IMG/VR virus record: IMGVR_UViG_3300000063_000049
Span: 1 to 30,602 of that record
Reading direction: 5' to 3' (one strand)
DNA from: a virus
DNA: 30,602 nucleotides
Below the pieces are notes generated by a model that had not been told where the DNA came from, ran no database searches, and saw only the letters and a program-made list of their open reading frames with translations. Shown piece after piece: positions 14,795 to 30,602 of the stretch (the stretch's first letter is position 1; each line of letters starts with the position of its first letter). Position numbers and translations under genes: made by a program.

Positions 14795-16822
14795 ATGCCT
14801 TTCCCTTACGCAGACGGTGCAGCGGTTCACCATGATGCGTATAAGCGAGGGCTCAAGCCCGACCCTGACCTCTGGGTCGATGAGTGGGCTGATCAGCACA
14901 TGCGAATTCCGCGAGACAGCGGCGCTGCTGAGCCAGGCCAATATCGCACCGCGCGTACGCCGTATGCCCGTGAGCCTATGCGCTGCCTTTCACCCGCGCA
15001 CCCCTGCAAGCGCGTAGTCACCATGGTCGCTTCGCAGCTGATGAAAACCCAGATCGCCTTGAACTGGATCGGCGGTCTGATCCACATGGCGCCGTCGAAC
15101 ATCCTCACGCTGCTGCCCAGTCTGGGGCTGGCCAAGCGGGTGTCGTCGCGGATCAGCAAGACGATCAAGGCCACGCCGGTGCTGCGCGAGCGGGTAGCGT
15201 CGAGCCGTTCGCGGGACTCGCGCAATACGATGGACACCAAAGAGTTCGAGGGTGGCTCGCTGTATGTCACCACCGCTGGCTCTGCCGCCAACCTGTCGGA
15301 ACTCTCGGCCCGTTATGTTTACGGCGATGAGATCGACCGCTGGGAAGTCGACATCGGCGAAGAGGGTGACCCCATCGAGCTGGCGGAAACGCGGGGCAGT
15401 ACGTTTGGCCGGAACGCCAAGTTCTACTTCTCCAGCTCACCGACCATCAAGGGCGCTTCGCGGATCTCCGATCTGTTCGAAGGCAGCGACCAGCGTTATT
15501 ACTATGTGCCATGCCCGACCTGCGGGCACATGCAGACGCTGGAATGGGAGCGCCTGCATTACTCCAAAGACTACAGGGTGGTGCATTACCAGTGCGCCGG
15601 GCCTGATTGTGATGTGCTGATCGAAGAGCACCACAAAGGCGACATGCTCGCTCGTGGCGAATGGCGAGCCCACGCCGAAGGCGATGGCGAGACGGTAGGC
15701 TTCCACCTCAACGCGTTGTATTCGCCGCTGGGCTGGATGGACTGGAAGTCGCTCGCCAAGCAATTCGAGAAGGCGATAAAAGCCCAGGCCAAAGGCGACC
15801 TCGAACCCATGCAGGTGTTCTACAACACCCGTCTGGCCAAGGTTTGGGACAGCGCGCAAGAGCAAACCAAAGCCGACGTGCTGATCGCGCGGGCGCGGTT
15901 GGAAGTTTATTCCCTTGGCTCAATGCCGTCCGGTGTGCTGATGCTCACCGGCGCCGTGGACGTACAGGCCAACCGTCTGGAACTCATGGTGATGGGTTGG
16001 GGCGTGGGCATGGAACGCTGGGTGGTCGATCATCAGGTGATCGCGGGTGATCCTTCGGACCCACGCACATGGTCGGCGCTGGATGAACGGCTCAAGGCGC
16101 GGTATCGACATCCATGCGGCGTCGGTCTGGCGATTCTTGCCACGGCGGTCGACTCCGGTGGTCATCACACCGATGAGGTTTACCAGTTCTGCCGAGTGCG
16201 ACGCTGGCGAAACATCTTCGCGATCAAGGGGGCGAGCAAGCCTGGCAAACCGGTCATCGCTCAGCGGCCGTCCATGGTCGACGTGACATGGAAAGGTCAG
16301 ACCGAGCGTGGCGGCGCCGAGCTGTGGTTCGTTGGTACCGACACCGCGAAGGACTGGATCTACAACCGTTATCCGTTTGAAGACGGACCGGGTGCGCTGC
16401 ACTTCGCCAACGACCTGCCGGATGACTTTTTCGCCCAGTGCGTGGCTGAGCGCAAGATCACCCGCTACGTCAAAGGATACAAGCGAATCGAGTGGGTCAA
16501 GGGCAAGGCCGAGCGCAACGAAGCGCTCGACCTGATGGTGTACTGCCTGGCCATGGCTCATTACCTGGGTATCAACCGATACAACGAACATGACTGGGAT
16601 CGGGTTCGCCAGGCGATGGCGCAGTCCGGATTGTTTGACGAAGTGTTGGGCGTCAAACCTGTGCAGGGCGAGCGGCTCAGCGAAGACGAAACACCGGCTC
16701 CCACGGCCGCACGACAGGCTAAACTTTCGCCTCAACCCGCTGCAACAGCTGCATCAACGCGACCTATCACGCCGGTATCAGCACGTCGTAGCTCACAAAG
16801 CGTCTACTTGAAAAGACGGTAG
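14795..16822 (+). CDS. terL: Terminase large subunit (lambda gpA-like)
   Basis: This 675-residue motor and nuclease resembles the lambda gpA family. The ATPase has a Walker A-like VASQLMKT at 78-85 and Walker B ARYVYGDEIDRW at 172-183 (Asp178, Glu179). A zinc-ribbon-like insertion (YYYVPCPTCGHM, later CAGPDC) lies around residues 230-270. The nuclease half includes GAVDVQANRLELMVMGWG and ATAVDSGGHHTDEVY. It translocates DNA into proheads and cuts at cos. The C-terminal 60 residues are low-complexity (Ala, Pro, Thr, Gln rich), where portal contacts are expected. The gene stops 1 nt before the end of a converging minus-strand gene. Confidence 0.95.
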   Translation: MPFPYADGAAVHHDAYKRGLKPDPDLWVDEWADQHMRIPRDSGAAEPGQYRTARTPYAREPMRCLSPAHPCKRVVTMVASQLMKTQIALNWIGGLIHMAPSNILTLLPSLGLAKRVSSRISKTIKATPVLRERVASSRSRDSRNTMDTKEFEGGSLYVTTAGSAANLSELSARYVYGDEIDRWEVDIGEEGDPIELAETRGSTFGRNAKFYFSSSPTIKGASRISDLFEGSDQRYYYVPCPTCGHMQTLEWERLHYSKDYRVVHYQCAGPDCDVLIEEHHKGDMLARGEWRAHAEGDGETVGFHLNALYSPLGWMDWKSLAKQFEKAIKAQAKGDLEPMQVFYNTRLAKVWDSAQEQTKADVLIARARLEVYSLGSMPSGVLMLTGAVDVQANRLELMVMGWGVGMERWVVDHQVIAGDPSDPRTWSALDERLKARYRHPCGVGLAILATAVDSGGHHTDEVYQFCRVRRWRNIFAIKGASKPGKPVIAQRPSMVDVTWKGQTERGGAELWFVGTDTAKDWIYNRYPFEDGPGALHFANDLPDDFFAQCVAERKITRYVKGYKRIEWVKGKAERNEALDLMVYCLAMAHYLGINRYNEHDWDRVRQAMAQSGLFDEVLGVKPVQGERLSEDETPAPTAARQAKLSPQPAATAASTRPITPVSARRSSQSVYLKRR

Positions 16823-16823
16823 A

Positions 16824-17264
16824 TTAGGGTGTGAGGCCAACCAATGGACTGATAAGCCTGGTGCCAATTGAGAAAGCTTGTGACACCAAACCACGTGCGA
16901 TCTCCTTGCCGCCGCTCTTGGCGGTGGAAGCGAGTTGTTCACCGATGGTGGCTTTCGAACTCACGCTATCGGGTATCGCTTTGAGCACCTCAAGACCCTT
17001 GGCGGTCAGCACTGCGTAGTTAACACATACATATGGGTTAGGTTGGCCGTGTAGGTAGCCTGCTTGAATCAGCCATTGGGCTGTCGCGATAAAAAACTCA
17101 GCGTCATCGGTCGGGACTTCCACCTGGTAGGTCTCATCGAAACGCATGGCGGTGTCCATGAAATCCTCTGCTGGTAGCGTCTGTGGTACAGGAAAGCTTT
17201 GATAAAGCTCGGCAAATATCCTTCCCACGATGTCGTCAAATTTTTCGATATTGGAGACAGCCAT
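16824..17264 (-). CDS. Minus-strand insert gene, unknown (possible lysogeny moron)
   Basis: The 146-residue product starts MAVSNIEKFDDIVGRIFAEL. It contains a winged-helix-like middle (FFIATAQWLIQAGYL, then AVLTAKGLEVLKAIPDS) and a hydrophobic amphipathic end (IARGLVSQAFSIGTRLI). No family was recognised. It has its own SD (GGAG, 9 nt before the ATG). It fits between terL (stop 1 nt away) and the next late gene, and its start codon overlaps that gene's start in one CATG. Opposing the late operon, it would be expressed when late genes are silent, typical of a prophage moron. A candidate -10 (TTTAAT, 17305-17310) and an inverted repeat lie upstream. A superinfection-exclusion role is only a guess. 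Confidence 0.7.
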   Translation of the reverse strand: MAVSNIEKFDDIVGRIFAELYQSFPVPQTLPAEDFMDTAMRFDETYQVEVPTDDAEFFIATAQWLIQAGYLHGQPNPYVCVNYAVLTAKGLEVLKAIPDSVSSKATIGEQLASTAKSGGKEIARGLVSQAFSIGTRLISPLVGLTP

Positions 17265-17514
17265 GTCACAGAACTCCGAAGAAAAAGCACACCAGGTGCA
17301 GAAAATTAAAGCTGCTGCTGAGCTACAACACGAGCTACGTCGTGTTGTGGGGGATCAGTTGGCCGGCCGAATGGACTGGGTGCGTGCACGCATCTACTGG
17401 CGCACGATGCTGCCGGATATTCCCGCAGAAGAGCTTGCCGATGCACTGACCCATGTTTTGGCCGGCGGCAGCTTTCAAGCAGAAATACGGTCGAGAAACC
17501 AGAATTTCGTCTGA
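17263..17514 (+). CDS. 83-residue hypothetical late protein
   Basis: The ATG shares CATG with the divergent gene, and a GGAG (17253-17256) lies 6 nt upstream, inside the other gene's coding sequence. The product is helical and charged (QKIKAAAELQHELRRVV), with WVRARIYWRTMLPDIPAEEL and no recognised motif. It sits between terL and the head-tail joining gene, so it may be a small head-morphogenesis or regulatory protein. Its coding DNA also holds the likely promoter of the minus-strand gene, so its sequence may be constrained by both roles. Confidence 0.6.
   Translation: MSQNSEEKAHQVQKIKAAAELQHELRRVVGDQLAGRMDWVRARIYWRTMLPDIPAEELADALTHVLAGGSFQAEIRSRNQNFV
17325..17348. promoter_or_regulatory. 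9-bp inverted repeat near the promoter of the minus-strand gene
   Basis: ACAACACGA and TCGTGTTGT form a perfect inverted repeat with a 6-nt loop (GCTACG). It covers where the -35 of the divergent gene should lie if TTTAAT (17305-17310) is its -10. The half-sites AACACG/CGTGTT match the half-site in the phage operators but are 5 bp farther apart, so it is probably not the same kind of site. Confidence 0.5.
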
Positions 17515-17555
17515 CCTTTTATATCACCTCGCCTCACACCTCAAGAGTTCACCCC

Positions 17556-17762
17556 ATGGCCTTTACCCAGAAGCACCTCGACGCAGTCGAGGAGGCAATC
17601 GCGCGCGGTGAAAAAGTCGTGCGCTATACCGACCGCAACGTCGAGTACCGCACGGTGGACGAGCTGCTGCAGGCACGCGATCAGATCCGGACCTCGTTGC
17701 TCAGTTCCGCCGCGCCGCGCTCCCGCGTGGTTCGGCTTTACCATGGAGGCAAGGGACTGTAA
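17556..17762 (+). CDS. Head-tail joining protein (gpW-type)
   Basis: The 68-residue product (MAFTQKHLDAVEEAIARGEK, then VVRYTDRNVEYRTVDELLQA) has the helix-hairpin-helix style of gpW-type head-tail joining proteins and identical length to lambda gpW, with a basic end. The protein binds the portal ring and plugs it after packaging. The stop overlaps the portal ATG. Position between the terminase and portal genes matches lambda order. Confidence 0.85.
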   Translation: MAFTQKHLDAVEEAIARGEKVVRYTDRNVEYRTVDELLQARDQIRTSLLSSAAPRSRVVRLYHGGKGL

Positions 17763-19240
17763 TGGCACACTATCCGACGCTTACCCGTAACGGATTCCTG
17801 TTGCCGGATCGCATCAAGGCCAGTTACGAAGGCGCCGGTGAGGGTCGCAGATCGGCCAGTTGGGATGCGCCCGACAGCGGGATCAACAGCATCGTCATGC
17901 CGGCCTTGCGCAACCTGCGCGCCCGCTCCCGTGCGGCGGTGCGTAACGATCCGTATGCCTTCAATGCCATCGACAAACGCACCAGTAACCTGATCGGCAC
18001 CGGCATCAACCCTCGTCCACGCATCGACGATAATGTGTTGCGCAAGCTGCTGCAGGAACTCTGGGAGGATTGGGTCGAGGAGTCCGACGCCGATGGCCTG
18101 ACCGACTTCTACGGCCAGCAGGCGTTGATTGCGCGCACGGTCGAGACGGCGGGTGAGGCTTTCGTCCGCTTGCGACCTCGCAGCCGGGACGAAGGCCTCG
18201 CGGTGCCATTGCAGATTCAGGTGTTGGCCCCGGAGTTCGTGCCGCACGACAAATTCGAGACCACCAAAAACGGCAACATCATCCGGGCCGGCATCGAATT
18301 TAGCCCGGCCGGTAGGCGAGAGGCGTATTGGATGTATCTCTCGCACCCGCGAGATAACTCGTCGTTGAACAGTGGCTACAACCAATTGGTGCGCGTGCCG
18401 GCCAGTCAGGTATTGCACATCTTCGAACCTATCGAACCTGGTCAACTGCGTGGCGTTCCCCGACTGTCACCGGTGTTGAAGCGCTTGCGCAGCCTCGACA
18501 ACTACGATGACGCAGTGCTGTTCCGTCAGGAAGTGGCCAACCTGTTCGCCGGCTTCATCACCAAGCCGGCGCAGGACGCAGGCCAGATGCCTAGGGATCC
18601 GGTGACTGGCGCACTGTTGAACCCTGACCGCGACGGCTTCACGCCAATGGTGGCGCTTGAGCCCGGCACCATGCAGGAACTCGGCGTCGGCGAAGAGGTG
18701 GAGTTCTCCAAGCCGCCAGATGCCGGCAACAACTACCCGGACTTCATGCGGCAACAACTGATGGCCGCCGCAGCAGGGTCGGGCACGCCTTACGAAATCC
18801 TCACCGGCGACATGCGTGGGGTCAACGACCGGGCACTTCGGGTGGTGCTGACCGAGTTCAGGCGGCGCCTGGAGCAACTGCAATTCGGTGTTTACGTTCA
18901 CCAGCTCTGCCGGCCGGTGCGGGCCGCATGGATGGACATGGGCGTGCTCTCCGGAGCGCTGAACTTGCCCGACTACGCCAAGCGTCGCCGCGAATACCAG
19001 CGTACCCGTTGGGTGCCGCAAGGCTGGGCCTACATCCAGCCTGTGCAGGACGTGCAAGCCAAGATACTTGAGGTTAATGCGGGCTTCGGCTCCCGCAGCG
19101 AGATGGTCCTGCGCACCGGCTACGACGCCGAAACGGTCGATCTGGAAAACGCCGCCGATGCCGAACGGGCGCGGCGTCTGGGTCTCAATTACAAAACGCT
19201 CGCTGAAGTCGTCGAGCCAGAAGAAAAGGAACAACCATGA
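17762..19240 (+). CDS. Portal protein (lambda gpB-like)
   Basis: The 492-residue portal forms the dodecameric ring through which DNA enters and leaves the head. Landmarks include AVRNDPYAFNAIDKRTSNLIGTGI split over residues 59-82, GYNQLVRVPASQVLHIFEP and DNYDDAVLFRQEVANLFAGF. The ring-fold core is followed by a C-terminal helical part with QVLHIF-type and YEILTGD motifs typical of the family. It starts at an ATG overlapping the preceding stop (TAATG), and its stop overlaps the protease start (ATGA). Confidence 0.95.
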   Translation: MAHYPTLTRNGFLLPDRIKASYEGAGEGRRSASWDAPDSGINSIVMPALRNLRARSRAAVRNDPYAFNAIDKRTSNLIGTGINPRPRIDDNVLRKLLQELWEDWVEESDADGLTDFYGQQALIARTVETAGEAFVRLRPRSRDEGLAVPLQIQVLAPEFVPHDKFETTKNGNIIRAGIEFSPAGRREAYWMYLSHPRDNSSLNSGYNQLVRVPASQVLHIFEPIEPGQLRGVPRLSPVLKRLRSLDNYDDAVLFRQEVANLFAGFITKPAQDAGQMPRDPVTGALLNPDRDGFTPMVALEPGTMQELGVGEEVEFSKPPDAGNNYPDFMRQQLMAAAAGSGTPYEILTGDMRGVNDRALRVVLTEFRRRLEQLQFGVYVHQLCRPVRAAWMDMGVLSGALNLPDYAKRRREYQRTRWVPQGWAYIQPVQDVQAKILEVNAGFGSRSEMVLRTGYDAETVDLENAADAERARRLGLNYKTLAEVVEPEEKEQP

Positions 19241-20379
19241 GCAAGAAAGCGAAACCGCGCATTTACAACCGGGCCGGCAAGCGAGTTCAGGTGCAAGACA
19301 AAACCTGGTACGCCGTGCAAGCCGATGGCGAAGCCGCCGAGCGAGTCATCGAGGTCTTTGTTTACGGTGAGATCGGCGCATGGGGCGTCACGGCCAACCA
19401 GTTCGTGCAGGATCTGCGGGCCATGGATGACGGTGTGTCGCCGGTCATCGCGGCCTTCAACAGCATCGGCGGTGACCTGTTCGATGGCCTGGCAATCCAC
19501 AACGCGCTGTCCCGTTTGGGGGAGCGCTGCACCGGCCGCATTGATGCCTTGGCCGCCAGTGCGGCGAGCGTTGCGGTCTGCGGTGCCCACCGAGTAGTCA
19601 TCGCGGCCAACGCCATGCTCATGATTCACAACCCGTCGACCTACACCGGCGGCGATGCCGAAGACTTCCGCCGTGTTGCCGACGTGCTGGACCAAACCTT
19701 GGAGGCGATTATCGCGGCCTACAAGTCCAAGGCCCCTGACATTGACGAGGTCGAGTTGCGGCGTCTGGTCGATGCCGAGACCTGGTTGACTGCCAATGAA
19801 GCGGTGGCGCTGGGCCTGGCCGATGAAGTCGGCGACGGGGTCAAGGTCAAAGCTTGTCTCGGTCAGGGCTGGGTGATGCAGCGCTTTCAGAATGCACCGG
19901 CTGATTTGCTGGCCCAGCTCGACGAGCCTCCGGAGGCTGACCCGGAGGATCCTCCGCTGGTGCCGCCGGCGCCGGTGGTTGATTCCACCAAACTGGCATT
20001 GATGATCACCCAGAGCTGTACGCAAGCCGGCATCAGTAACCTGATCGAGCCGTTGATTGCGTCGACCAGGCTGGTGGATGAAGCCACGGTTCAGGCCGCG
20101 CTGACACGAGCCAAAGCGGTGAACGATTTGTGCGTCGCCGCTCGTTTCCCTGAGTTCGCACTGCAGTACGTCACGGCAGGTCTTGATGCCGAAGCGGTAC
20201 GCGGGCGCCTGTTCGACAAGCTCGTTGGCAGTGGCAAGGGCTTCGAGATCGACAACAGCCTGCCGCTACAAAACGACCCACCAGCGAAAGTACAGGCCAA
20301 ACAACCCGACCCGACATCGATCTGGGCGGCCCGCAAGGGCGCTCAGTCCGGGCAAACATCGTCCTCGAAAGGAGCTTAA
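19237..20379 (+). CDS. ClpP-like head maturation protease fused to scaffold
   Basis: The N-terminal 200 residues are a ClpP-fold protease: NSIGGDLFDGLAIHNAL (75-91), nucleophile Ser108 in ALAASAASVAV, and His131 in MLMIHNPSTY. The remaining 180 residues are low-complexity and then helical (TKLALMITQSCTQAGISNLI), like the scaffold segment of lambda gpC. It would cut scaffold and portal during head assembly. In lambda the Nu3 scaffold starts inside gene C; an internal start here is possible but unproven. It is translationally coupled to the portal. Confidence 0.92.
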   Translation: MSKKAKPRIYNRAGKRVQVQDKTWYAVQADGEAAERVIEVFVYGEIGAWGVTANQFVQDLRAMDDGVSPVIAAFNSIGGDLFDGLAIHNALSRLGERCTGRIDALAASAASVAVCGAHRVVIAANAMLMIHNPSTYTGGDAEDFRRVADVLDQTLEAIIAAYKSKAPDIDEVELRRLVDAETWLTANEAVALGLADEVGDGVKVKACLGQGWVMQRFQNAPADLLAQLDEPPEADPEDPPLVPPAPVVDSTKLALMITQSCTQAGISNLIEPLIASTRLVDEATVQAALTRAKAVNDLCVAARFPEFALQYVTAGLDAEAVRGRLFDKLVGSGKGFEIDNSLPLQNDPPAKVQAKQPDPTSIWAARKGAQSGQTSSSKGA

Positions 20380-29330: not shown

Positions 29331-29834
29331 ATGATTCCGCAAACGCTGTTCAACACTAACCTGTTCGTCGACGGCATGAGTTTCGCCGGTGATGTGCCGG
29401 AGCTGTCATTGCCCAAGGTGTCGGTCAAGACCGAGGCTTACCGCGCAGGCGGCATGGACGCCGAGATCGACATGGACATGGGCCTGGAAAAACTTGAGGC
29501 CTCGTTCAGTACCAACGGCGTGCGCAAGGAGGCCATGAAGTGGTTCGGCCTGGCTGACGGTACGGCCTTCAACGCTTCGTTCCGTGGTTCGTTCAAGGGC
29601 CAGAAAGGCGAGTTCACCGGCGTCACCGCGACCCTTCGCGGGATGCTCAAAGAGCTTGATCCCGGCAGTTGGAAACCGGGTGACAAGGCCGAGTTCAAGT
29701 ACTCGATCAGCGTCACGTATTACAAACTCGAAATCGATGATGTCGTCATCTACGAACTCGATCCGGTCAACTCGGTTCGCGCAATCAACGGCGTCGACCA
29801 ACTTCAGCAGATGCGCAATCAGCTGGGTCTGTAA
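29331..29834 (+). CDS. FII: Tail tube protein FII
   Basis: This 167-residue inner tube protein (P2 gpFII type) contains NLFVDGMSFAGDVPELSLPK, MDAEIDMDMGLEKLEASFST and YKLEIDDVVIYELDPVNSVR. Hexamers stack to form the DNA channel. It starts 12 nt after the sheath stop; length matches P2 FII (about 170). Confidence 0.95.
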   Translation: MIPQTLFNTNLFVDGMSFAGDVPELSLPKVSVKTEAYRAGGMDAEIDMDMGLEKLEASFSTNGVRKEAMKWFGLADGTAFNASFRGSFKGQKGEFTGVTATLRGMLKELDPGSWKPGDKAEFKYSISVTYYKLEIDDVVIYELDPVNSVRAINGVDQLQQMRNQLGL

Positions 29835-29843
29835 GGAAAAGTC

Positions 29844-30173
29844 ATGAGTGACACAGTCTTGGATATCGCTACAAACGGTCCGAAGAAAGATCCGGCGTGG
29901 ATGGTCGTGACCGACGAGGGCGTAACCCTCACGCTGTCGACGGCCAGCGAATTGAACGGCGTCAAACAGAAGCAAATCACCATGCGTTCGCCGACCATTC
30001 GCGAGGTGCGGGTCTGTCAGGCGGCGCACCCAAAGGATGATCTGGCGGTCGACACCATGCTGTTTGCCAGCCTCGCCGGGATCGGCGAGAAAGACCTGGT
30101 GGGGCTGACGGTGAAGGACTACAACCGCGTCAAGGATGGCTATTTTCGTCTGGTCGAAGAGGACGAGCTTTAA
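29844..30173 (+). CDS. E: Tail assembly chaperone E
   Basis: The 109-residue chaperone (TAC_7-like) contains GVTLTLSTASELNGVKQKQI, then VDTMLFASLAGIGEKDLVGL and VKDYNRVKDGYFRLVEEDEL at the end. Such proteins coat the tape measure during tail assembly and are made with a frameshifted extension. The stop is in GAG CTT TAA C, where a +1 shift would add the 37-residue E' segment. The 146-residue fusion is close to P2 E+E' (142). It starts 9 nt after the tube stop. Confidence 0.9.
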   Translation: MSDTVLDIATNGPKKDPAWMVVTDEGVTLTLSTASELNGVKQKQITMRSPTIREVRVCQAAHPKDDLAVDTMLFASLAGIGEKDLVGLTVKDYNRVKDGYFRLVEEDEL

Positions 30174-30285
30174 CCCTTCGCTGTTGCGGCAGCTGGCAAA
30201 ACGTCTGGCCAAGGAAACGGGTTTCACCTTGGCCGACATCGAGACAATGCCGTTTTACGACATGGTGTGGTGGCTCAGGGATTGA
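30172..30285 (+). CDS. E': E' extension (GpE family), probably made by +1 frameshift
   Basis: This segment encodes NPSLLRQLAKRLAKETGFTL and ADIETMPFYDMVWWLRD, matching P2 GpE' (GFxLxEIExMPxxxxxWW pattern). It is in the frame one base ahead of E. It is joined directly to E if the ribosome reads CTT, skips the U and continues at AAC. An independent ATG in this frame (30136) exists but lies directly after AAGG with no proper SD spacing, so a frameshift is preferred. Confidence 0.8.
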   Translation, partial: NPSLLRQLAKRLAKETGFTLADIETMPFYDMVWWLRD

Positions 30286-30323: not shown

Positions 30324-30602
30324 ATGGCGAATGAATTAGCGCTTGGGCTGGTCATCGGCGGCGCGGTCAACAAGTCGGTGGGGACGGCCTTCAAGGATGT
30401 CGATGGCCGGGTTAAGCGGCTCGAAACCACGATGGGCAAGGCCAAGGCGCTGCAATCGGTCATCGGTGAAACCAAGCGCTTGCAGGATGAGTGGCGCAAG
30501 GCGCACCTGGCCGGATCTGCCATGGCTGACGGACTACGGCGCAAGCTGGACGCGAACCTTGACACCCTGCGCCGTCAGGGCGTCGAGGTGCGCAATCTGG
30601 GC
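30324..30602 (+). CDS. T: Tape measure protein, N-terminal fragment
   Basis: The frame is open to the window edge (93 residues). It begins MANELALGLVIGGAVNKSVG and continues as a coiled-coil (KRLETTMGKAKALQSVIGE, then TKRLQDEWRKAH), typical of tape measure proteins following chaperones E and E'. It determines tail length. The weak SD (GGGGCGACG) and an upstream ATG at 30311 out of frame leave the start slightly uncertain. The remainder lies outside the window. Confidence 0.88.
   Translation, partial: MANELALGLVIGGAVNKSVGTAFKDVDGRVKRLETTMGKAKALQSVIGETKRLQDEWRKAHLAGSAMADGLRRKLDANLDTLRRQGVEVRNLG

What the first reader, a model, noticed from the sequence alone, without database searches (positions are those of the whole stretch)
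30158..30180. prfB-like +1 frameshift site joining tail chaperones E and E'
E ends GAG CTT TAA C and E' continues in the +1 frame from AAC. CTT-stop-C is the same arrangement as the E. coli prfB site (CTT TGA C), and an SD-like AGAGGA lies 4 nt before the CTT, as the AGGGGG does in prfB. P2 and most relatives use a -1 shift at a T-rich slippery site. The fused product (146 residues) is close to P2's 142. A release-factor-sensitive stop as the control point would be an unusual solution for this chaperone.
Basis: partly seen in the sequence, partly recalled or inferred. Interest (0 to 1): 0.75.

Follow-up and report, generated by a model that had tools for sequence, protein, structure and literature searches.

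The report
Tail chaperone frameshift at UUU-C, not prfB-like
This Pseudomonas-type prophage almost certainly makes its long tail chaperone by letting ribosomes slip forward one base at a UUU-C sequence that is present at all of roughly 230 related junctions examined, including bacterial tail-weapon (pyocin) loci, whereas the release-factor-gene-like stop site first noticed is a by-product of overlapping genes.

Summary
The sequence is as described: E (29844-30173) ends GAG CTT TAA C, and E' continues in the +1 frame without its own start. The +1 direction and the 146-residue fusion are well supported. The proposed site is probably not the control point.

I compared about 230 unique E/E' junctions (viral contigs, one GenBank record, Pseudomonas-type genomes). 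CTT-stop-C occurs in 10 of 70 sequence clusters. E stops anywhere from 6 to 23 codons past a fixed point, often with no slippable codon there. That fixed point is UUU followed by a pyrimidine, window 30144-30147 (TAT TTT CGT), present at every junction (UUU_C in all but one, UUU_U in that one). tRNA-Phe can re-pair perfectly from UUU to UUC.

The +1 frame between UUU_C and the E stop has no stop codon in any junction and carries an excess tryptophan codon, so it is translated. In tandem E duplications, the first copy, which has no E' behind it, has lost UUU_C.

The mechanism resembles influenza PA-X (UUU_CGU) and bacterial UUU_Y sites. It is a switch from the -1 shift of P2-type relatives, shared with R-pyocin loci. 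No experiment has been done.

The parts
29331..29834 (+). tail tube (FII-type) gene; used to find relatives
   Evidence: one search finds 80 related loci with it
29844..30173 (+). E: short tail assembly chaperone, zero frame, 109 aa
   Evidence: PF10109 E=1.2e-15; phrog_166
30132..30139 (+). AAGGATGG: SD-like stretch upstream of the slip codon (anti-SD energy about -7.5 kcal/mol); not conserved beyond what synonymous coding gives
30141..30143 (+). TAT: E-site codon when UUU is in the P site; TAT used in 37 of 45 clusters although TAC dominates in the tube genes (141 to 40)
30144..30149 (+). TTT_CGT: inferred +1 slippery site, P-site tRNA-Phe re-pairs UUU to UUC (30145-30147), A-site CGU
   Evidence: invariant UUU_Y at all junctions:
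30148..30285 (+). E' part as translated after the +1 slip: VWSKRTSFNPSLLRQLAKRLAKETGFTLADIETMPFYDMVWWLRD, stop
   Evidence: conserved
30151..30153 (+). TGG (Trp) in the +1 frame, conserved in 67 of 70 clusters against 45 expected from E-frame coding; shows +1 translation upstream of CTT
30158..30163 (+).
30168..30174 (+).
30324..30602 (+). start of the tape measure gene (T), cut by the end of the record
   Evidence: phrog_794 weak, phrog_19282

Best explanation
E and E' are one tail assembly chaperone gene with two products. Most ribosomes read E and stop at TAA 30171-30173. A minority slip +1 at UAU_UUU_CGU (30141-30149): with tRNA-Phe on UUU in the P site and CGU waiting in the A site, the tRNA moves forward one base onto UUC, a perfect and stronger match, and translation continues GUC UGG UCG ... 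through the E stop into E'. The product is the 146-aa fusion ...VKDGYF-VWSKRTSFNPSLLRQ... The short form and the fusion then act as the two chaperone forms that load the tape measure and tail tube, as gpG and gpGT do in lambda. Shown by sequence: conservation of the site, +1-frame coding downstream of it, and loss of the site where E' is absent. Inferred: actual slippage, its rate, and the chaperone role. No downstream structure and no obligatory SD element was found.
For: (1) UUU then a pyrimidine at all 82 first-set junctions, found without selecting on the codon, and at all 127 unique junctions aligned by profile. In genome loci 100 of 105 have it at that column and the other 5 have TTT_C one or two codons downstream, with E' still in the +1 frame. 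(2) Phe codons in the tube genes are TTC 243 to TTT 92. The neighbouring Tyr codon varies TAT/TAC while TTT does not. (3) No +1-frame stop between UUU and the E stop at any of 230 junctions; in 70 clusters synonymous shuffling gives a mean of 5.6 junctions with a stop (lowest of 500 runs: 1). TGG in 67 of 70 against a mean of 45 and maximum of 57. (4) In loci with tandem E domains, all 49 first copies carry Ser or Ala codons where all 49 second copies, next to E', carry TTT_CGN. One relative with TTC_ATG at that place has no E' behind it. (5) L014 changes CGN to TGC but keeps a perfect +1 re-pairing (UUU_U). [quoted passage not shown]
Against: No protein or reporter data. The window's CTT_TAA_C could also slip. 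Sequences are related, so the binomial odds overstate independence. Third-position variability in the overlap is still E-like, so the +1 linker is only partly constrained (Trp, Thr, Phe, Pro).
Confidence: 0.87

Rival explanations
1. prfB-like +1 slip at CTT_TAA_C (30168-30174), stimulated by AGAGGA and slow termination, as the main route.
For: The sequence is there. CTT_stop_C occurs in 14 of 134 viral-set junctions and 30 of 105 genome junctions. CUU_U is the conserved slip site in prfB (PMC12421855).
Against: Absent in 60 of 70 clusters. In several loci E stops before this place or reads past it. The stop is TAA, which RF1 also reads, whereas prfB uses TGA in over 99% of genomes (PMC12421855). 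The SD-like element is weak and not conserved. It does not explain invariant UUU_Y, Trp conservation or the missing +1 stops.
Confidence: 0.07
2. -2 slippage (Mu-like) at or near the same place, giving the same frame with one extra residue.
For: Same net frame; phage Mu uses -2 for its tail chaperone (PMC5009743).
Against: At UUU a -2 move puts tRNA-Phe on AUU, or on ACU where Tyr is TAC, with mismatches; +1 gives a perfect UUC. No other -2 slippery run is conserved.
Confidence: 0.03
3. E' is made on its own from an internal start, for example ATG 30136.
For: ATG 30136 is in the E' frame.
Against: No start codon position in the E' frame is shared by a majority of clusters; AAGG directly abuts this ATG. 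Independent initiation does not explain UUU_Y.
Confidence: 0.02
4. Transcriptional slippage or a sequencing error creates the apparent frame change.
For: None found.
Against: The T run is only 4 long; the same frame relation is present in all independent genomes and contigs sampled.
Confidence: 0.01

Closest known systems
Influenza A PA-X frameshift site UCC_UUU_CGU (PMC3498833)
   Same: UUU_CGN, P-site tRNA-Phe UUU to UUC, +1, no evident downstream structure. 225 of 230 junctions here have CGN in the A site; locus L308 has TCC_TTT_CGA.
   Different: Bacterial ribosomes and tRNAs; E-site codon is UAU/UAC, not UCC; CGC and CGT are common codons in these phages, so a rare A-site codon is unlikely to be the cause.
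Bacterial UUU_Ynn +1 sites, including Y. pestis YopN-TyeA (PMC5009743)
   Same: Same slip codon and rule (pyrimidine next), no stop codon needed.
   Different: Here the site lies in a tail chaperone and is conserved across a large family of prophages and tailocins.
P2 E+E' and relatives (-1 at TTTTTTG; PMC3091744)
   Same: Same gene pair, same place between tail tube and tape measure, E of the same Pfam family.
   Different: Direction +1 instead of -1. Relatives L005-L012 have E' in the -1 frame and form a separate clade (99/98 support).
prfB +1 frameshift (PMC12421855)
   Same: Direction +1, single P-site slip; E. coli prfB also has UAU in the E site (from my own knowledge).
   Different: Slip codon is Phe UUU before a sense codon, not CUU before TGA; no release-factor control; no hyper-conserved AGGGGG.
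Listeria phage tsh +1 sites CCC_UGA (PMC5009743)
   Same: +1 shift in a phage tail gene.
   Different: Different gene (major tail protein), Pro codon before a stop.

Membership tests
E/E' tail assembly chaperone (P2 E, PF10109) | E domain matches the family profile | tested here: met
   PF10109 1.2e-15, above the curated cut-off
E/E' tail assembly chaperone (P2 E, PF10109) | Lies between tail tube and tape measure genes | tested here: met
E/E' tail assembly chaperone (P2 E, PF10109) | C-terminal extension in another frame with conserved protein sequence | tested here: met
   E' conserved to WWL in the 82-junction set
P2-type -1 frameshift | E' in the -1 frame after an X_XXY_YYZ or T-run heptamer | tested here: not met
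   E' is in +1; only distant relatives L005-L012 are -1
prfB-type +1 site | CTTT immediately before the stop, C after it, conserved across relatives | tested here: not met
   present in the window, but CTT_stop_C in only 10 of 70 clusters
prfB-type +1 site | stop is TGA, read by RF2 only | tested here: not met
   TAA in the window; TGA, TAA and TAG all occur in relatives
prfB-type +1 site | conserved purine-rich SD-like AGGGGG 3 nt upstream | tested here: not met
   AGAGGA at 4 nt, not conserved
UUU_Y (PA-X-like) +1 site | UUU followed by a pyrimidine, allowing perfect +1 re-pairing, invariant in relatives | tested here: met
   82/82, 127/127, 105/105 allowing 1-2 codons of drift
UUU_Y (PA-X-like) +1 site | CGN codon in the A site | tested here: met
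   225 of 230; exceptions are CTG 4 and TGC 1
UUU_Y (PA-X-like) +1 site | +1 slippage shown by fusion peptide or reporter | not testable with these tools
   needs the bench
Mu-type -2 site | tRNA can re-pair two bases upstream | tested here: not met
   UUU to AUU or ACU mismatches (sequences)

The most novel reading that the evidence does not exclude
UAU_UUU_CGN is the standing decoding device of contractile-tail chaperones throughout Pseudomonas prophages and R-type pyocins, a bacterial counterpart of the PA-X class in which the E-site UAU and A-site CGN matter. It arose by a switch from -1 to +1 in a shared ancestor, and could make tail and tailocin yield depend on tRNA-Phe (its amount and anticodon-loop modification).
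Probability: 0.35. Interest if true: 0.62.

Novelty: new variant of a known kind. Interest (0 to 1): 0.5.

Why it matters
Phage tail chaperone frameshifts are mostly catalogued as -1, and +1 sites are hard to recognise. One clearly conserved +1 site, with a paralogous loss as a natural control, gives a simple UUU_CGN rule for annotating E' in many prophages and R-pyocin loci, where E' carries no Pfam or NCBIfam match and is missing from the annotation I checked. It also offers a testable bacterial model for the UUU_CGN class known from influenza PA-X, and a case of related genes that differ in shift direction. I found no report of this site in the open-access library searched; subscription papers were not searchable.

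Tried and rejected
Searching for relatives with the E protein alone failed; the tail tube query worked. A downstream RNA structure: mean z about 0 for +9..+60 and -0.9 for +9..+90 across clusters, window positive; rejected as a required element. An SD-like stimulator upstream of UUU: strong in the window, but the family mean at 3 nt spacing is no better than synonymous shuffles (43 of 200 as low; spacings of 6-8 nt do exceed the null); left open, not claimed. Codon-position entropy as proof of the shift point: not clean, because E-frame constraint persists to the E stop; replaced by the stop-free and Trp tests. Internal starts for E': no shared position. The junction set was filtered on TTT, so UUU invariance is claimed, not. 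Pfam and NCBIfam for E' alone: no match. Structure prediction was not run, as it would not locate the slip.

Full report
What was checked. The window is a 30,602-base virus record. E (29844-30173, 109 aa) matches PF10109, the E-type tail assembly chaperone, and lies between the tail tube gene (29331-29834) and the start of the tape measure gene (30324). It ends GAG CTT TAA C exactly as reported, with AGAGGA 4 nt before CTT. The +1 frame is open from 30115 to 30285 and encodes E'.

Relatives. The E protein alone found almost nothing. The tail tube protein found 80 loci in viral contigs. A profile of fused chaperones added more, and genome searches added loci in one genus of 25 species (17 with the gene) and in 90 of 299 genomes of a second genus. 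Annotated phages at lower identity (L005-L012) have E' in the -1 frame instead. A tree of E domains puts the -1 users on one side of a well supported branch (99/98) and the +1 users on the other.

Where the shift happens. In the first 82 loci the motif search did not ask for any particular Phe codon, and every junction had TTT followed by a pyrimidine: TTT_CGC 48, TTT_CGT 31, TTT_CGA 2, TTT_TGC 1. Profile alignment gave the same for all 127 unique junctions. In the genome set 100 of 105 had TTT_C at that column. The remaining five have it one or two codons later: four read ACN TTT CTG and one TCC TTT CGA, with E' still in +1 and, in the four, Trp kept directly after the slip. In the same phages' tube genes Phe is TTC 243 and TTT 92, so TTT is not merely the favoured codon, and the adjacent Tyr codon does vary.

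The stop site, by contrast, varies. Among 45 clusters of the viral set E stops 6, 7, 9, 14, 15, 18 or 23 codons after TTT, with TGA, TAA or TAG. The last codon before the stop is GTT, CTT, ATT, CTG, GAC, GAT, GAA, CGC and others. In 70 clusters of the combined set CTT_stop_C occurs 10 times, and any slippable CTT or TTT before the stop 22 times. Where E stops 9 codons after TTT, the resemblance to prfB arises because the +1 frame encodes F-D or F-N: TTT GAC or TTT AAC, read one base earlier, gives NTT TGA C or NTT TAA C.

Is the stretch between the two candidate sites translated in +1? Yes, by two tests against synonymous shuffles of the E frame. No junction has a +1 stop between TTT and the E stop (0 of 230; in 70 clusters the null mean is 5.6 and the lowest of 500 runs is 1), whereas 11 of 230 have one in the 9 codons just upstream of TTT. 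And the second +1 codon after the slip is TGG, Trp, in 67 of 70 clusters against a null mean of 45 and maximum of 57. If ribosomes changed frame only at the E stop, this stretch would never be read in +1. The junction set was chosen to contain TTT, so this call is not used as evidence that TTT is invariant.

Natural controls. 49 loci carry two E domains in one open frame. The first copy, with no E' behind it, has Ser or Ala codons (TCG 37, TCA 4, TCC 3, GCA 3, TCT 1, GCG 1) where the second copy, next to E', has TTT_CGN in all 49. One relative (L208) with TTC_ATG at that place has lost E'. The Phe codon is therefore not needed by E itself; it is kept where E' follows.

Mechanism. tRNA-Phe on UUU moves one base forward to UUC, with perfect pairing. 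UUU_U in L014 keeps the rule. A -2 move would put the tRNA on AUU or ACU, which does not pair. [quoted passage not shown] The family here has the same UUU_CGN pattern at 225 of 230 junctions. The E-site codon is mostly TAT (37 of 45 clusters), although TAC is the common Tyr codon in the tube genes. Whether that matters is untested. No downstream structure was found. The window has a good SD-like stretch, AAGGATGG, 4 nt before TTT, but the family as a whole is no stronger at 3 nt spacing than synonymous coding predicts.

R-pyocins. L004 is OQ658366, filed as a Pseudomonas aeruginosa phage. Its 18.5 kb hold tail, lysis and regulator genes and no annotated head genes, flanked by two genes whose labels (nucleoside phosphorylase, carbamoyl phosphate synthase small subunit) are most likely TrpD and TrpG (this reading is inference). 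A genome relative (L218) has the same tail cluster directly upstream of a GATase and a Glycos_transf_3 gene, consistent with trpG and trpD. These fit R-type pyocin loci. They use TTT_CGC with E stopping 15-23 codons later and no CTT at the stop, so the prfB-like reading cannot apply to them.

Limits. There is no experiment. The rate of slippage is unknown. A minor share from CTT_TAA_C in this phage cannot be excluded. Sequences are related, so counts are not independent; clustering at 80-90% was used to soften this. Genome names are not shown by the tool, so the host genus is inferred from the pyocin loci and the P. aeruginosa record.

Noticed in passing
L057-L092, L111-L148, L163 (E region): Tandem duplication of the E domain within one open frame (about 199 aa E) in 49 loci; the first copy has lost the UUU_C site. 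Why a double chaperone is kept is unknown.
   Followed up: partly
L004 / L310 (OQ658366.1): Record named a Pseudomonas phage looks like an R-pyocin locus: tail, lysis and regulator genes, no annotated head genes, apparent trpG/trpD neighbours. Only E is annotated; E' is missing.
   Followed up: partly
L208 (genome G404, two identical copies): Tail cluster whose E has TTC_ATG in place of TTT_CGN and no E' behind it, apparently a decayed or re-purposed chaperone.
   Followed up: no
window 14795-20379: ORFs here look like a terminase large subunit, a portal and a ClpP-like protease of lambda type joined to a P2-type tail, so the record seems to be a head-tail mosaic rather than P2-like throughout (judged by reading translations only).
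   Followed up: no
L276, L278, L281, L282: The slippery UUU_C has moved one codon downstream (ACN TTT CTG) while the Trp after the slip is kept, a drift of the site that preserves the product length.
   Followed up: yes
L308 (genome G325): Divergent relative with TCC_TTT_CGA, close to the influenza PA-X context UCC_UUU_CGU.
   Followed up: no
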